A stretch of 33,241 nt of DNA from Marinilabiliaceae bacterium (lineage in GTDB: Bacteria > Bacteroidota > Bacteroidia > Bacteroidales > Marinilabiliaceae): the NCBI GenBank assembly GCA_029933425.1, contig JAOZOF010000012.1, positions 1 to 33,241 of the forward strand, written 5' to 3'. Below are positions 162-13,683 of the stretch, piece by piece (the stretch's first letter is position 1; the number at the start of each line of letters is the position of its first letter). A program made the position numbers and the translations under genes. Below the pieces are notes generated by a model, which saw only the letters and a program-made list of their open reading frames with translations, ran no database searches and was not told where the DNA came from.

Positions 162-1017
162 ATGAGAAAATTGAATTTTAATATGATTAACCTGACAGGA
201 CGGAAATTTATGAAAACTTTATATTTAGTTGTTTTTGCACTTGTTATGTTTTCATGTGTATTAAACTCAAATAAATCTTCCCATAAACAAGAATTTACAT
301 TTGTTCAAATTTGCGATACACAATTAGGGTTTGGTGGTTACGAACATGATGTTGAGTCGTTTAAACAGACAGTAAAACAGGTTAATGCATTGAACCCTGA
401 TTTGGTGCTTATTTGTGGAGATTTGGTAAATACTGTCACTGAAAAATCGATTGAAGATTTTAATAAAATCAAGCAGGGATTTAATATGCCATGTTACTGT
501 GCGCCGGGGAATCATGATGTTGGAAATGATCCAACTCTTTTGTCATTACAAAATTACCGGAAGGTTATGGGCAAAGATTACTACTCGTTTGTTCACAAAG
601 GAAATACGTTTGTTATTGTAAACACACAATTATGGAAAACTCCGGTGAAAGATGAAACAGAGAAGCAGGACGCATGGCTTGAAACAACTCTGAAAAATGC
701 TGCGAATCAGGAATCTCCGGTTTTTATTGTCGGACACCATCCTCTATTTCTTGAGAAACATGATGAGGAAGATGGATATTATAATTTGCCCATTATAAAA
801 CGAAAACAACTTCTTACTCTTTTTGAGAAATATGGCGTAGTTGCTGTGCTGGGTGGGCACACGCATACATTGTACATTAATGAATACAAAAATATTCAGT
901 TGGTTAATGGTGAAACCACAAGTAAGAATTTCGACAATCGCCCTTTCGGATTTCGCCTTTGGCATATTAATTCTTCAAGGCCGTTTAAACATAGTTTTAT
1001 TGCTTTATCAGGTTTTC
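162..1017 (+). repeat. Long direct repeat, copy 1 (metallophosphoesterase gene plus 5' extension)
   Basis: Colinear nucleotide similarity to 7828-8682, beginning upstream of the likely ATG at 210 (ATGAGAAAATTGAATTTTAATATGATTAACCTGACAGGACGG vs ATGAGAAGATTTAGTTTAATTATAATAAATCGCACGGGATGG). Confidence 0.75.
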
Positions 1018-1025
1018 AAGAATGA
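210..1025 (+). CDS. Calcineurin-like metallophosphoesterase lipoprotein (CPPED1-like), copy 1
   Basis: Motifs CDTQLG, CGDLVN, GNHD, GHHPLF and GGHTHT. Lipobox-like LVMFSC. The ORF opens at 162, but ATG 210 (MKTLYLVVFALVMFSC) places the signal peptide best. Confidence 0.88.
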   Translation: MKTLYLVVFALVMFSCVLNSNKSSHKQEFTFVQICDTQLGFGGYEHDVESFKQTVKQVNALNPDLVLICGDLVNTVTEKSIEDFNKIKQGFNMPCYCAPGNHDVGNDPTLLSLQNYRKVMGKDYYSFVHKGNTFVIVNTQLWKTPVKDETEKQDAWLETTLKNAANQESPVFIVGHHPLFLEKHDEEDGYYNLPIIKRKQLLTLFEKYGVVAVLGGHTHTLYINEYKNIQLVNGETTSKNFDNRPFGFRLWHINSSRPFKHSFIALSGFQE

Positions 1026-5647: not shown

Positions 5648-6781
5648 ATGAATTCAAGAGAGAGAGTATTAAGCGCTTTTAGTGGAAAAGGATATGATCG
5701 TATCCCTGTCAAACATGAGGGAACACCAGAAATTAACCAAATGATGATGGATTATTTTGGTCTTGATAATATGGAACAATTATTACTTGTTGTAGGAGAT
5801 GATTTTCGGTATGTCGAGCCTGTTTACATTGGTCCTGAATTGCGTAAATTTGATGATGGCAGTGTGGAGGGTTACTGGGGGGAAAGATATATATATGTTG
5901 AATTTGAAGGTGGAAAATACTTGGAATCAACATATTTGCCGTTTGCAAATGTTAATTCACTAGATGATCTGGATCGATCTCACTTTCCTACTGCTGACTG
6001 GTTTGACTACTCAACAATAAAAGCACAATGCGAAAAAACTAGAGAACGGGAATTTGCAGTGTGTTTTGGAACTGCCGGTGATATGGATTTTATCAACAGT
6101 ATTGCGCGTGCCAGAGGAACTGAACAGGTGTTGATTGATTTAATAACAGATGATCCGGTTTATTTGGAAATAATGGATGCCCGTTTTCAATTTTATTATG
6201 ATATGCACGAAAAAGTACTGCAAGCTGCAGACGGATTAATAGATTTTACACATATCGGAGAAGATCTTGGAACTCAGACCTCACAAGTAATTGATTTAGA
6301 TATTTTTGAAAGACATTTTGCCCCAAAGTTTAAAAAGTATTTTGATATGGCACATAGTTATGGAGCAAAAACTATGATGCATATGTGTGGTTGTGTAGGT
6401 GCTTTTTTACCTCGTCTTATCGAATTGGGACTCGATGTTTACGATGTAGTGCAACCAACAACACCCGAAATGGATATAGCTGTTCTTAAAAAGAATTTTG
6501 GCGAAACCCTGACCTTTTGCGGAAGTGTATGTGTTCAAACTACATTAGCTTATGGTACAGTAGAGGATGTTATTAATGAGGTAAACAGAAGAAAGAAATT
6601 ATTCGCTAAAGGAGGTCAGTTTTTAGGCCCGTCACATGCTATACAGGTTGGTACACCAATAGAAAATATTATCGCTTTGTACAAAACAGCCGGAAGCCTT
6701 GTTGAAAATATTGACGATTCCATTCTCTCGGTAAAGGGAGGAAAGGATGCCGGAGAAATAAACATGTCAAAACTATTTTAA
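5648..6781 (+). CDS. Uroporphyrinogen decarboxylase (URO-D)/MtaA-like superfamily protein, putative methyltransferase
   Basis: MNSRERVLSAFSGKGYDRIPV start is typical of the family. HMCGC...FCGSVC resembles the HxC...C zinc site of MtaA/MtbA/CmuA-type methyltransferases. The ORF opens at 5621; ATG 5648 is the more family-like start. Confidence 0.82.
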   Translation: MNSRERVLSAFSGKGYDRIPVKHEGTPEINQMMMDYFGLDNMEQLLLVVGDDFRYVEPVYIGPELRKFDDGSVEGYWGERYIYVEFEGGKYLESTYLPFANVNSLDDLDRSHFPTADWFDYSTIKAQCEKTREREFAVCFGTAGDMDFINSIARARGTEQVLIDLITDDPVYLEIMDARFQFYYDMHEKVLQAADGLIDFTHIGEDLGTQTSQVIDLDIFERHFAPKFKKYFDMAHSYGAKTMMHMCGCVGAFLPRLIELGLDVYDVVQPTTPEMDIAVLKKNFGETLTFCGSVCVQTTLAYGTVEDVINEVNRRKKLFAKGGQFLGPSHAIQVGTPIENIIALYKTAGSLVENIDDSILSVKGGKDAGEINMSKLF

Positions 6782-7818: not shown

Positions 7819-7827
7819 TAATTGATT

Positions 7828-8682
7828 ATGAGAAGATTTAGTTTAATTATAATAAATCGCACGGGATGGAATTTTTTTATAATTCTATATTTGGTTGTTT
7901 TGGCACTTGTTATGTTTTCATGTGCATTAAACTCAAACAAATCTCCCCATAATGAAGAGTTTAAATTTGTTCAAATTTGTGATACCCAATTAGGCTTCGG
8001 GGGTTACGAACATGATATAGAATCGTTCAGGCAGACTGTTAAACAGGTTAATGCAATAAATCCTGACTTAGTATTTATTTGTGGTGATATGGTCAATACC
8101 GTTACTGAAAAATCAATTTCAGATTTCAATATAATTAAGCAGAGTTTTAATATGCCATGTTACTGTGCTCCTGGGAATCATGATGTTGGAAATAATCCAA
8201 CTCTGTTAACAATGAAAAATTATCGTAAGGTTATGGGAGATGATTACTTCTCATTTGTTCATAAAGGGAATACATTTATTATTGTAAATACACAATTATG
8301 GAAAACTCCATTAAAAAATGAAACGGAAAAGCAGGACGCGTGGCTTGAAGCAACAATGAAAAGTGCTGCGAGCATTGGATCCCGAATTTTTATTGTTGGG
8401 CATCATCCTTTATTTCTTCAGAATCTGGAAGAGGACAATGGATATTATAATCTGCCATATGTTAAACGAAAACAACTTATTACCCTTTTTGAAAAATATG
8501 GTGTGGTCGCTGTTTTGGGTGGGCATACGCATACATTGTATATTAACGAATACAACGGTATGCAGTTAGTTAATGCGGAAACAACAAGTAAGAATTTTGA
8601 CAATCGCCCTTTGGGATTTCGTATTTGGCATGTTAAGTCTTTAAGACCTTTTAAACATGAATTTGTTGCTCTATCTGATTTA
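7828..8682 (+). repeat. Long direct repeat, copy 2
   Basis: See copy 1 (162-1017); same orientation, separated by about 6.8 kb. Confidence 0.75.
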
Positions 8683-8685
8683 TAA
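7828..8685 (+). CDS. Calcineurin-like metallophosphoesterase lipoprotein (CPPED1-like), copy 2
   Basis: Near-colinear with the 210..1025 product (CDTQLGFGGYEHD, CGDMVNTVTEKS, GNHDVGNNPTLL, GGHTHTLYINEY). The track start at 7822 is TTG; ATG 7828 is more likely. Confidence 0.87.
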   Translation: MRRFSLIIINRTGWNFFIILYLVVLALVMFSCALNSNKSPHNEEFKFVQICDTQLGFGGYEHDIESFRQTVKQVNAINPDLVFICGDMVNTVTEKSISDFNIIKQSFNMPCYCAPGNHDVGNNPTLLTMKNYRKVMGDDYFSFVHKGNTFIIVNTQLWKTPLKNETEKQDAWLEATMKSAASIGSRIFIVGHHPLFLQNLEEDNGYYNLPYVKRKQLITLFEKYGVVAVLGGHTHTLYINEYNGMQLVNAETTSKNFDNRPLGFRIWHVKSLRPFKHEFVALSDL

Positions 8686-8706: not shown

Positions 8707-9327
8707 ATGATGAGAAATATTTTAACACTATTATTGGCAATTCTATTTTTAACAGCTTGCCATAACGAGAAAAATAGTAATTCTGAATCTGCCCAAATTG
8801 AGCCGGGAGAAAAGTATAAACCGGTAATTTCAGGCGATTGGAAGTTACTTTTTAAACCCGATTCAACCATTGGAGCGTATATTAACGACCATACTTTGTA
8901 CAGGCACGAATCTACAGGTAAGTGGCATTTTATTGGGATTACATCGAAAGTAGTACCTGCAAATGCTGAAACAGAGGTCTATTTTGCCCAAGGGATTGGC
9001 GATTCTATAATTGTGAAAGGTGGTTACACTGATACTATACAAAAACTTTTTGATTCTGAAGAAAAAGCATGGGCACCTTATGCCTTCAACTATCAGGGTA
9101 AAGCTCATATATTTTTTGGCCCACAAAAAATAGCAACAAGTACTTCTAACGATGGGATGAACTGAACTCCTGAAAGAGTTTTAAAAAGAATTCCTGAAAT
9201 ATGGAAAACTGATGGCACAGTAAATCCTCCACATCGTGACGGGATGATTATTAAAAAAAGAGAAGATGGCAGAGATAAATGGCTTATGTATGCAACGGCC
9301 TTAGTAACTACTGATAGAGATACTATA
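8707..9327 (+). pseudogene. Truncated GH43-like/beta-propeller glycosidase lipoprotein, interrupted by in-frame TGA then cut off
   Basis: ORF 8707..9165 ends SNDGMN-TGA. The same frame continues as TPERVLKRIPEIWKTDGTVNPPHRDGMIIKKREDGRDKWLMYATALVTTDRDTI, so TGA sits where Trp is expected (DGxNW). Homology then stops where hsd-like antisense DNA begins. Confidence 0.78.
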
Positions 9328-9407
9328 TAACCACCTGCATCATTACCGGTGAGATAATTGAATATGTGGGTTTCAAAATCTATTTCTTTTATTCCTTGTG
9401 CCGTCAT
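9328..9407 (-). pseudogene. 5' fragment of a type I restriction endonuclease R subunit (hsdR-like)
   Basis: Minus strand from ATG at 9407-9405 reads MTAQGIKEIDFETHIFNYLTGNDAGGY, matching the usual HsdR N-terminus pattern (I.E..FE..I...L...GGY). It then runs into antisense of the GH43-like pseudogene. Confidence 0.72.
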
Positions 9408-9420
9408 GCTGTAATTTTTT

Positions 9421-9618
9421 TTAAACTGGCGGTTTCCAATCTCTAACATCTATTTTGCCTGTAACTGCTTCTGAAATTAGAGACTGTTTGTATTGTTTTA
9501 GTTTTTCTGTTTGTGTTGAAATTAGGGATTTTATCTTGTCTATATGAATAATCTTATCATTAATGAAAGATAAGATACGTTCTATTTCTTTTTTAGGTGG
9601 AATAACTATCTGAAAAAA
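9421..9618 (-). pseudogene. 3' fragment of a type I restriction specificity subunit (hsdS-like)
   Basis: Minus strand reads FFQIVIPPKKEIERILSFINDKIIHIDKIKSLISTQTEKLKQYKQSLISEAVTGKIDVRDWKPPV*, a characteristic HsdS C-terminus (coiled coil plus LISEAVTGKIDVR). An in-frame TAG lies upstream (9621-9619) and there is no start. Confidence 0.85.
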
Positions 9619-9630
9619 CTATGAAAAACA

Positions 9631-12600
9631 TCATGTTTGCTTTTTAATAAAGACAGAGGGAGATACATCGAAAACTTTTTTGAATGATTTACTAAAATAT
9701 GCATAATCTGTGTAGCCGACTTTATCTGCAACCTCTGCAATAGTAAAACTGTGTGTCTTTAATAATTTCTTAGCTTCATTTAGCCTGACATTGCGTATAA
9801 ATTCAGATGTACTTAAGCCTGTAATTTTCTTTAATTTTCGATGTAAATGTGGACGACTAATGAATGCTTTATCACACAGTTCGTTAATATGAAAGTTTGT
9901 GTCGTCGATATTTTCAAGGATAATACCGGTTAATTTACTAATGAATTGTGCTTCATGATTCTGCAATGTTTTGATAGATTCGTCTAATGTGTCGAACTTT
10001 GCAAATCGTTTTTTATTATCATCTATTGATTTAAGAATATTTCTGACTTTTAAATCAAGCTCTTCTAAGTTAAATGGTTTATTTATGTAATCTTCGGCAC
10101 CTCTTGATAAACCTTCAATTTTTGACTCATCACCTGTTTTAGCAGTAAGCAGGATGATAGGTATATGGCTTGTCTCAATATTTTCTTTTAGGATTGTGCA
10201 TAACTGGTTACCATCAATTTTAGGCATCATTACATCACTTATTATTATGTCAGGCTGCGACCTTTCAATTTGTTTAAGGGCTTCTTCTCCGTTTGTTGCA
10301 ACTTTCGTTTTATAATGTTTAGAGAAATGCTTTTTTAAAAATGATGATAAATCTTTATTGTCTTCAACAATCAGTAATTCGTGTTTACTGTCTTTATGGC
10401 CATCAGTATTATTCTCAGTTATAATATATTTTTCCAAATCGTTAATTATCAGATTAATGTTCTTGTCAGAGACTTTGTCGATAAAAACGCTGTTATGATC
10501 TTCATCATCATAGATATTAAACAAGGGTATTGTGATGATAAATTCAGTTCCCGTTCCAACTTTACTTATAACTTTTATAGTGCCGTCTAATAGTTTTATA
10601 AGGCTGTTTACCATTGCTAGCCCGATGCCACTATCGAAATTGTTATTATTGCTTGTGTAAAAGGGATCGAAAAGTTTTTTTAACTTTTCCTCCGAAATTC
10701 CCGGCCCATTATCAGAAATTCGGATTTTAATGTTCGAACCTGATTTGTATTTATTATTCAATGTATTTATCTTATTTTCTTTTATAATATCCAGGGTTAC
10801 TGTTATAAGTCCTTCTTCTTCAAAGGCTTTTATGGAATTGCTTAATATGTTCGAGATTATCTTTTCTATTTTATCAGCATCAAAATAACATTCTAATAAA
10901 TCAATTTCAGATTTAAACCTGATGTCTATTGATTTCTTTTTTAATAAAGGTTCGAAATAATTTATTATGCTTGATATATATTTTATTATATCTCCTCTGT
11001 TAATATTAATTGAGGCATGATCTGTTTCAATTTTTCTGAACTCCATCAGTTGATTTATTAAGAATAACAGCCTGTATGCGTTCTTTTTTATAATATGTCC
11101 ATATTTCGTTACTGTTTTTGAGCTTTTATTCTCACTGAGCATTTCGTCAATTGTTGCAATTACAATTGATAAGGGTGTTTTAAATTCGTGACTGATGTAA
11201 GTGAAGAAATTTATTCGACTGGCAATAAGCTCCTCATTTTTTTGCTTATCCAGTTCAATTAAACGCAGGTTAAGTTTTTCCCGGTTACGTTTTTGAAGAA
11301 AACGTATATAGGAAATTACGATTATTACGATTACAATAATATATGTTAAGTATCCCCAAATAGATAACCAGAACGGGGGAGTTACAGTTATTTTTAAAGT
11401 CCTGATATTTTCAGACCAGTTTTCAGCTCCATTGGTTGCCTTTACTTTGAAAACATAAGTTCCGGGATAGAGGTTGGTATATGTTGCTGAAATTTGGGAG
11501 TTTACATAATTCCAGTTATTCTCAAACCCCTCAAGAAAATACGAATATTGTACTTTTTTTGGGGCATAATAGTTTATATTGATATAGCCTATTGAAAAAA
11601 TATTATCGGCATAATCTAAGGTTATTTCTTTAACATCATCTATGTGACTGGACAGGATTCCATTCTTCTTTATTTCTACTGATTTATTGAACAATTTAAA
11701 ATCAGTAAAATGAATATCAACATCCGGCTTTGGGAAGATAATGTTTTTTGGGTTAAAATATGTCAAACCGTTTACTGCTCCAAAATATAATGTACCATCT
11801 TTGGATTTCAGGCATGATGCATAATTAAACTGGTTTCCCACCAGACCATCATATTCATTATAATTTTCAAACTGATTGGTGCTTAAATTTAGTTTGGATA
11901 ACCCTTTGGTAGTAGAACACCAAATGTTATTATAATCATCTTCAATTATGGCATATACAGTATTATTTGGCAGTCCGTTTTTGATTGTATAAACAACAAA
12001 GTCCTGTCCGGAATAGTCATATTTTATTAGTCCGCCTCCCTGAGTTCCAAACCATATATTCCTTTCAGAATCTTCATACGAATATAGGAACATATTGTTA
12101 ATAATGCCAGGGGTGTTGTCTTTATTAAAATTGGAGATATTACCATTTTTATCAATCTTGTATACCCCAAAGAAATAAGAACAAATCCAGATGTTACCAT
12201 TGCTGTCTTCATTAATGTGACGCAGGAACTTATTATCAAATGTCTCTTTATATACTTCAACAAAAGAGTCATTGTCCTTTCTAAAAAGGCCGTTAAGTGT
12301 TGCTGCCCATATTCTGTTTTGTGAATCTTTTTCCAATGAAAATACATTGGATAGTTTTTCGCCCCCTGTAACTTTTTCCATTTTGTTAGTCACAGGGTTA
12401 TATTTATTAATGCCCCCTAAAAATGTACCTATCCATATAATACCTTTTTCATCTTCCAACAGGGCGTGTACATTATTTGAGAGCAGGGTGTTTTTCTCTT
12501 TTTTATTATGTTTTATATACTTAAATGACCTGTTTTTTCTGTCATATACGGATATTCCACCATCCTCAGTTCCAATCCAAATCCTGCCGTCTGTAGTCTC

Positions 12601-13683
12601 GATTATTGAACTTAACGCTTTGCCGGACAACATTCTGAAACCTCCGTCTGCATATATTTTATTGAACCCTTTAACTGACGGGTCAGTATAATTTACACCA
12701 CCAAAATAAGTTCCAATCCACATAATCCCATCCCTGTCCTTGAAAATAGAATATATTGCTTTATCGCTTAAGCCAATACCTGTTCTGTCAAAGTCCTGCC
12801 CAAAGAAGTTGAACTTCTGGCTAATAATGTCATAAATATATAACCCTGATTCAGTACCGATCCACAGGCGTCCGTTTTTATCCTCACTTATTGCACGTAT
12901 GAAGTTATCTTCGATATCATTAATTCCGTCTTTTAACCTGATATTGTAAAATTTATCGGACATTGCATCATAATATGCAAGTCCGTTTTTACTTGTTCCA
13001 ATCCAAACAGTGCCTCTCTTATCTTTAAAAATAGTAACTAAATTATCAGCCGAAAAGTTAATGTTACAATCATGAGTTGATTCGTTAAAAGTATTAACAA
13101 GTTTCCCGTTATGGTCAAGTACCTGAATCTCATTATTTGTAACTGCCCATATAAAATTTTCATCATATTCTGTTAAGCTGTGGAAATTCCCATCTTTTAT
13201 TTTTGTAATAACATTATTATGGTATTTATACAGGCCGTTTACTGTAGATATGATAATGTTTTTATCCGACAACTCAATTATGTCATTTATCCATGGAAGA
13301 TTTTGGTTTTCATATAAAATGTCAATAAAACTATTTTTATTTTTATTATATATACTCAAGCCCTTTGTTGTACCTACAAACATTTTCCCATTAGAGCTTA
13401 CGAGAAGTTTTAATATAATATTTGAAAAACTTTTGGCATTTGTAGGGTTATTATAATATGAAACAATATTAATTCCGTCGAATTTGTTCAATCCTTCAAT
13501 CGTTGCAATCCAAATATAGCCATCACTATCCTGTACTATGTCATGAACGGTATTGTTGGACAGGCCTTCGACAGAAGTGATGTGAGTGAATGACAGTGTT
13601 TTCTGTGCTTTTATATTTAGTGTGTACAAAAACAGCACAATTAAGAATAGGTATAAGTAACTTTTAAAATTAGTAATAGCCAT
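9631..13683 (-). CDS. Hybrid two-component system (HTCS) regulator: beta-propeller/Y_Y_Y sensor, histidine kinase, receiver and AraC-type HTH
   Basis: 1350 aa. Repeated IWIGT/ENGIW-type Reg_prop motifs, one central TM segment, SHEFKTPLSIV (HisKA), DNGPGISEEKLKKLFDPFYT (HATPase), IIISDVMMPKIDG (receiver), C-terminal AraC HTH. Confidence 0.96.
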   Translation of the reverse strand: MAITNFKSYLYLFLIVLFLYTLNIKAQKTLSFTHITSVEGLSNNTVHDIVQDSDGYIWIATIEGLNKFDGINIVSYYNNPTNAKSFSNIILKLLVSSNGKMFVGTTKGLSIYNKNKNSFIDILYENQNLPWINDIIELSDKNIIISTVNGLYKYHNNVITKIKDGNFHSLTEYDENFIWAVTNNEIQVLDHNGKLVNTFNESTHDCNINFSADNLVTIFKDKRGTVWIGTSKNGLAYYDAMSDKFYNIRLKDGINDIEDNFIRAISEDKNGRLWIGTESGLYIYDIISQKFNFFGQDFDRTGIGLSDKAIYSIFKDRDGIMWIGTYFGGVNYTDPSVKGFNKIYADGGFRMLSGKALSSIIETTDGRIWIGTEDGGISVYDRKNRSFKYIKHNKKEKNTLLSNNVHALLEDEKGIIWIGTFLGGINKYNPVTNKMEKVTGGEKLSNVFSLEKDSQNRIWAATLNGLFRKDNDSFVEVYKETFDNKFLRHINEDSNGNIWICSYFFGVYKIDKNGNISNFNKDNTPGIINNMFLYSYEDSERNIWFGTQGGGLIKYDYSGQDFVVYTIKNGLPNNTVYAIIEDDYNNIWCSTTKGLSKLNLSTNQFENYNEYDGLVGNQFNYASCLKSKDGTLYFGAVNGLTYFNPKNIIFPKPDVDIHFTDFKLFNKSVEIKKNGILSSHIDDVKEITLDYADNIFSIGYININYYAPKKVQYSYFLEGFENNWNYVNSQISATYTNLYPGTYVFKVKATNGAENWSENIRTLKITVTPPFWLSIWGYLTYIIVIVIIVISYIRFLQKRNREKLNLRLIELDKQKNEELIASRINFFTYISHEFKTPLSIVIATIDEMLSENKSSKTVTKYGHIIKKNAYRLLFLINQLMEFRKIETDHASININRGDIIKYISSIINYFEPLLKKKSIDIRFKSEIDLLECYFDADKIEKIISNILSNSIKAFEEEGLITVTLDIIKENKINTLNNKYKSGSNIKIRISDNGPGISEEKLKKLFDPFYTSNNNNFDSGIGLAMVNSLIKLLDGTIKVISKVGTGTEFIITIPLFNIYDDEDHNSVFIDKVSDKNINLIINDLEKYIITENNTDGHKDSKHELLIVEDNKDLSSFLKKHFSKHYKTKVATNGEEALKQIERSQPDIIISDVMMPKIDGNQLCTILKENIETSHIPIILLTAKTGDESKIEGLSRGAEDYINKPFNLEELDLKVRNILKSIDDNKKRFAKFDTLDESIKTLQNHEAQFISKLTGIILENIDDTNFHINELCDKAFISRPHLHRKLKKITGLSTSEFIRNVRLNEAKKLLKTHSFTIAEVADKVGYTDYAYFSKSFKKVFDVSPSVFIKKQT

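What the first reader, a model, noticed from the sequence alone, without database searches (positions are those of the whole stretch)
9328..9618. Type I restriction hsdS 3'-end/hsdR 5'-end scar wedged inside a glycan-utilization region
On the minus strand this ~290 bp reads as the last ~65 codons of an HsdS (…KQYKQSLISEAVTGKIDVRDWKPPV*), a 13-nt gap, then the first ~27 codons of an HsdR (MTAQGIKEIDFETHIFNYLTGNDAGGY). The native hsdS-hsdR junction is kept but both genes are severed. One edge cuts the GH43-like gene and the other lies just past the HTCS stop codon. This looks like the joint where a PUL (HTCS onward) was joined to a rhamnose cassette via a restriction-modification locus. It would be missed by ORF callers because no complete gene is present.
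Basis: partly seen in the sequence, partly recalled or inferred. Interest (0 to 1): 0.72.

Follow-up and report, generated by a model that had tools for sequence, protein, structure and literature searches.

The report
Fossil scrap of a restriction-modification locus
A 290-base scrap of a bacterial DNA-defence operon (end of its hsdS gene, start of its hsdR gene) sits between two sugar-degradation gene clusters next to a broken enzyme gene; it is a real but ordinary genome-decay scar, or possibly an assembly seam.

Summary
On the minus strand, 9421-9618 encodes the last 65 codons of a type I HsdS (up to 56-58% identity to HsdS genes of other genomes). After a 13-nt gap, 9327-9407 encodes the first 27 codons of an HsdR, as in intact hsdS-hsdR operons. 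Both genes are cut. The left neighbour is also broken: a GH43-like gene that lacks its last ~120-130 residues and carries an in-frame TGA where all seven aligned relatives have Trp. The right edge lies 0-15 bp past the HTCS stop.

No close copy of the scrap was found in the same assembly, in 70 family members, in ~390 order members, or in plasmids by DNA. The missing hsdS, hsdR and GH43 parts were not found elsewhere in the assembly, which is only 86% complete. The best reading is a decayed remnant of an hsdMSR operon that lay between convergent genes and lost both flanks by illegitimate deletion or replacement. It is probably non-functional. The main rival, a chimeric join in a 504-contig assembly, cannot be excluded without reads. 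The claim that a PUL was joined to a rhamnose cassette here is plausible but only partly supported. Low interest.

The parts
9421..9618 (-). 3' end of a type I hsdS (last 65 codons plus stop)
   Evidence: translation; relatives; ORF context
9408..9420 (-). native-type hsdS-hsdR spacer, 13 nt
   Evidence: spacers of intact operons read
9327..9407 (-). 5' end of an hsdR (first 27 codons)
8707..9327 (+). 5' three-fifths of a GH43-like lipoprotein gene, with in-frame TGA at 9163-9165 at a conserved Trp and its 3' third missing
9307..9329 (.). left breakpoint interval (GH43-like alignment ends at about 9306; HsdR homology resumes at about 9329)
9616..9630 (.). right breakpoint interval (HsdS matches begin at residue 2-4; HTCS stop codon is 9631-9633)
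9631..13683 (-). intact HTCS hybrid two-component regulator of the neighbouring PUL

Best explanation
The segment is a non-functional remnant of a type I restriction-modification operon (hsdM-hsdS-hsdR, read on the minus strand). The operon once lay between the convergent GH43-like gene and the HTCS gene, or came in with one of the two blocks. Two illegitimate events trimmed it. One removed hsdM and most of hsdS up to just past the HTCS stop. The other removed nearly all of hsdR together with the last ~120-130 codons of the GH43-like gene. Only the ~290 bp hsdS-hsdR joint remains. Shown: identity of both fragments, native order and spacing, truncation of both hsd genes and of the GH43-like gene, nonsense codon in the latter. 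Inferred: former intact operon at this place, two deletion or replacement events, lack of function.
For: HsdS C-terminus and HsdR N-terminus in native order and spacing. Seven homologues of the GH43-like gene continue ~120-130 residues past the join, and all have Trp where this gene has TGA; a nonsense codon next to the join is expected if the truncation is real and the gene is decaying, not if only the assembly is wrong. No near-identical source in the same assembly: its only PF01420 HsdS gene (C483) is 40% identical in this part and intact, and its truncated HsdR (C470) belongs to another, EcoR124-like subfamily. The missing GH43 3' part gave no hit in the assembly. The right edge leaves the HTCS reading frame whole, as selection would.
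Against: The parent locus and intermediate states were not found in any relative. The two breakpoints could not be resolved to microhomology because parental sequences are unknown. Read coverage was not available. The hsd codons show no stops, so there is no independent sign of decay in the scrap itself. The negative is weak: the tool warns that an empty answer without a positive control shows little.
Confidence: 0.66

Rival explanations
1. Assembly chimera: a short-read metagenome assembler joined two carbohydrate contigs through a ~290 bp piece of a third sequence, so no such junction exists in any cell.
For: The window is a whole 33,241-bp contig of a 504-contig, 86%-complete assembly. The piece is about two short reads long and cut at both ends. 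No relative shows the arrangement. Chimeric contigs are a recognised problem in metagenome assemblies (PMC9661791, PMC10174551; abstracts only).
Against: The nonsense codon in the truncated GH43-like gene 160 bp before the join points to real decay. No loose ends of the same hsd or GH43 genes were found in the assembly. The two flanks do not differ clearly from each other in tetranucleotide usage (left versus PUL parts 0.55-0.64, HTCS 0.42), though this is weak.
Confidence: 0.27
2. Filler DNA: a single illegitimate join between the two carbohydrate blocks captured a short foreign hsdS-hsdR fragment; no hsd operon ever stood here.
For: One event would explain both sharp edges; no intact hsd locus was found at the site in relatives.
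Against: No source copy in the assembly. Capture of exactly a native gene joint is not required by the model, nor against it.
Confidence: 0.15
3. The segment is kept for a function (regulatory RNA, recombination target for hsdS exchange, or a small protein).
For: Both hsd reading frames are still free of stops over 92 codons.
Against: No promoter-like excess and no terminator at the segment, only short AT-rich repeats and no repeat marking the edges, no conservation in 71 family genomes or 394 order genomes beyond the hsdS coding motif. Short stop-free frames are also expected for a recent scrap.
Confidence: 0.02

Closest known systems
Type I restriction-modification operon hsdM-hsdS-hsdR of Bacteroidota (e.g. 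Cellulophaga L030, Flavobacteriaceae L026, family member G018 L091)
   Same: HsdS ending in KxYRQSLISEAVTGKIDVRDW, followed within a few nucleotides by an HsdR start of the xxGTKEIHFEDHIxNYLT type.
   Different: Here only the last 65 codons of hsdS and first 27 of hsdR exist; no hsdM, no target-recognition domains, no nuclease or motor domain.
Decayed defence-gene remnants / RM pseudogenes
   Same: Truncated, non-functional RM gene pieces next to other broken genes. A few hsdS hits in other genomes are also short and not at contig ends (L046, L067, L076).
   Different: Cut on both sides, keeping just the intergenic joint.

Membership tests
Type I RM system (functional) | HsdS with two target-recognition domains (PF01420) | tested here: not met
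   PF01420 search of the assembly hits only C483, not the window; only the last 65 codons of hsdS are present.
Type I RM system (functional) | HsdR with N-terminal nuclease (PF04313) and SWI2/SNF2 motor | tested here: not met
   No HSDR_N match in the window; hits lie on C470, C483 and C55.
Type I RM system (functional) | hsdM methyltransferase gene next to hsdS | tested here: not met
   The place upstream of the hsdS piece is taken by the HTCS gene.
Remnant of a type I RM operon | Sequence homologous to hsdS and hsdR in native order, strand and spacing | tested here: met
Remnant of a type I RM operon | Abrupt loss of homology at both ends with disruption of coding sequences | tested here: met
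   Left: GH43-like gene cut within 9307-9329. Right: HTCS stop 0-15 bp from the last HsdS homology.
Remnant of a type I RM operon | Intact operon at the same site in a relative | tested here: inconclusive
   No relative carries the site at all.
Assembly chimera | No reads span the joins | not testable with these tools
   No reads are available.

The most novel reading that the evidence does not exclude
The site is a recurrent recombination or insertion point where defence operons are swapped next to PULs, and the scrap marks one such turnover.
Probability: 0.05. Interest if true: 0.4.

Novelty: new member of a known kind. Interest (0 to 1): 0.12.

Why it matters
If real, it records that a restriction-modification locus once lay between two glycan-utilization blocks and was lost, a small example of defence-gene turnover at PUL borders. 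It also warns that gene callers may report a spurious 114-aa hybrid ORF here. It is not evidence of a new system.

Tried and rejected
Tested whether contig C470 (an HsdR cut at its N-terminus by the contig end) is the missing hsdR body. It is an EcoR124-type HsdR (PF12008 C-terminus), only 21-27% identical to HsdRs next to the relevant HsdS relatives, so rejected. Tested C483 as the donor: intact hsdM-hsdS-hsdR but 40% identical in this part of HsdS, rejected. C55 looks like a restriction-methyltransferase of another type, not the source. C187 hit to the HsdR N-terminus (E 1.45) lies in the start of an unrelated ~500-aa frame and looks like chance. Plasmid DNA search and phage protein search: no match; plasmid protein search: one Prevotella HsdS at 47%. 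Viral-contig scans failed twice with a server error. Looked for repeats marking the edges: none convincing. A tRNA as an integration site: none. Literature searches found no description of this locus.

Full report
Setting. The window is an entire contig (C462, 33,241 bp) of a 4.04-Mb, 504-contig, 86%-complete assembly. Left of the finding is a plus-strand rhamnose cassette: metallophosphoesterase, GH106, DUF4434, URO-D-like, RhaT, a second metallophosphoesterase, and a GH43-like gene. Right of it is a minus-strand HTCS regulator (9631-13683) and, divergent from it, a PUL with two DUF2961-type genes, SusC/SusD, GH43 and other genes (SusC/SusD named from sequence and by their matches in related PULs). 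The finding lies between two convergent genes.

Observation. The minus strand reads the last 65 codons of an HsdS with its stop (9618-9421), a 13-nt gap, and the first 27 codons of an HsdR (9407-9327). The HsdS piece has 396 relatives in one-per-species genomes, nearly all at the C-terminus of ~450-aa ORFs. In L026, L030, L019 and family member G018 (L091) HsdS is directly followed by HsdR with a start like xxGTKEIHFEDHIxNYLT. The order, strand and spacing are therefore the native ones; chance is not a reasonable explanation.

Edges. On the left, the GH43-like gene aligns with seven homologues of about 320-350 aa and stops about 120-130 residues short of their ends. It also has TGA at 9163-9165 at a Trp column kept in all seven. 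The fragment itself does not score in Pfam, but two full-length homologues hit GH43. On the right, HsdS homology starts 0-15 bp after the HTCS stop. Since hsdM and the 5' part of hsdS would lie where the HTCS gene is now, and the hsdR body where the GH43-like gene is now, two separate breaks are needed.

Source. The same assembly holds one intact hsdM-hsdS-hsdR set (C483), 40% identical in the relevant part of HsdS, and one EcoR124-like HsdR cut by a contig end (C470). Neither is the source. Of 71 family genomes and 394 order genomes, other matches are short (up to ~135 bp in the family, ~85 bp in the order; the best, at 71-82% identity, fall in the conserved end of hsdS). No plasmid DNA or phage protein match was found.

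Neighbouring blocks. HTCS orthologues are rare. The best, in G292 (46%), belongs to a related PUL whose GH43c is 67% and GH5 47% identical, and it is followed by respiratory-complex genes instead.

Interpretation. The simplest reading is a decayed remnant of an RM operon, trimmed from both sides. The nonsense codon in the truncated neighbour favours a real event. An assembly chimera stays possible (27%); the piece is about as long as a short-read pair and no reads can be checked. A single join with captured filler DNA is a further option. A function is unlikely.

Verdict. Real homology, correct coordinates, ordinary biology or artefact; low interest.

Noticed in passing
window 162-1025 and 7822-8685: Two paralogous metallophosphoesterase genes (82% DNA identity over 934-1015 versus the second copy) flank the GH106-DUF4434-URO-D-RhaT rhamnose cassette; possible tandem duplication.
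   Followed up: no
window 9105-9449, minus strand: Spurious 114-aa hybrid ORF that contains the HsdR start and runs antisense into the GH43-like gene; a gene caller may report it.
   Followed up: yes
G000:C470 (L121, 2,822 bp): EcoR124-type hsdR cut at its 5' end by the contig end; a second type I system in this assembly is incomplete.
   Followed up: partly
L005 (C483) 5947-6777: An extra ORF of 276 aa sits between hsdS and hsdR of the intact type I operon; it resembles DUF3800-type proteins from memory, not tested.
   Followed up: no
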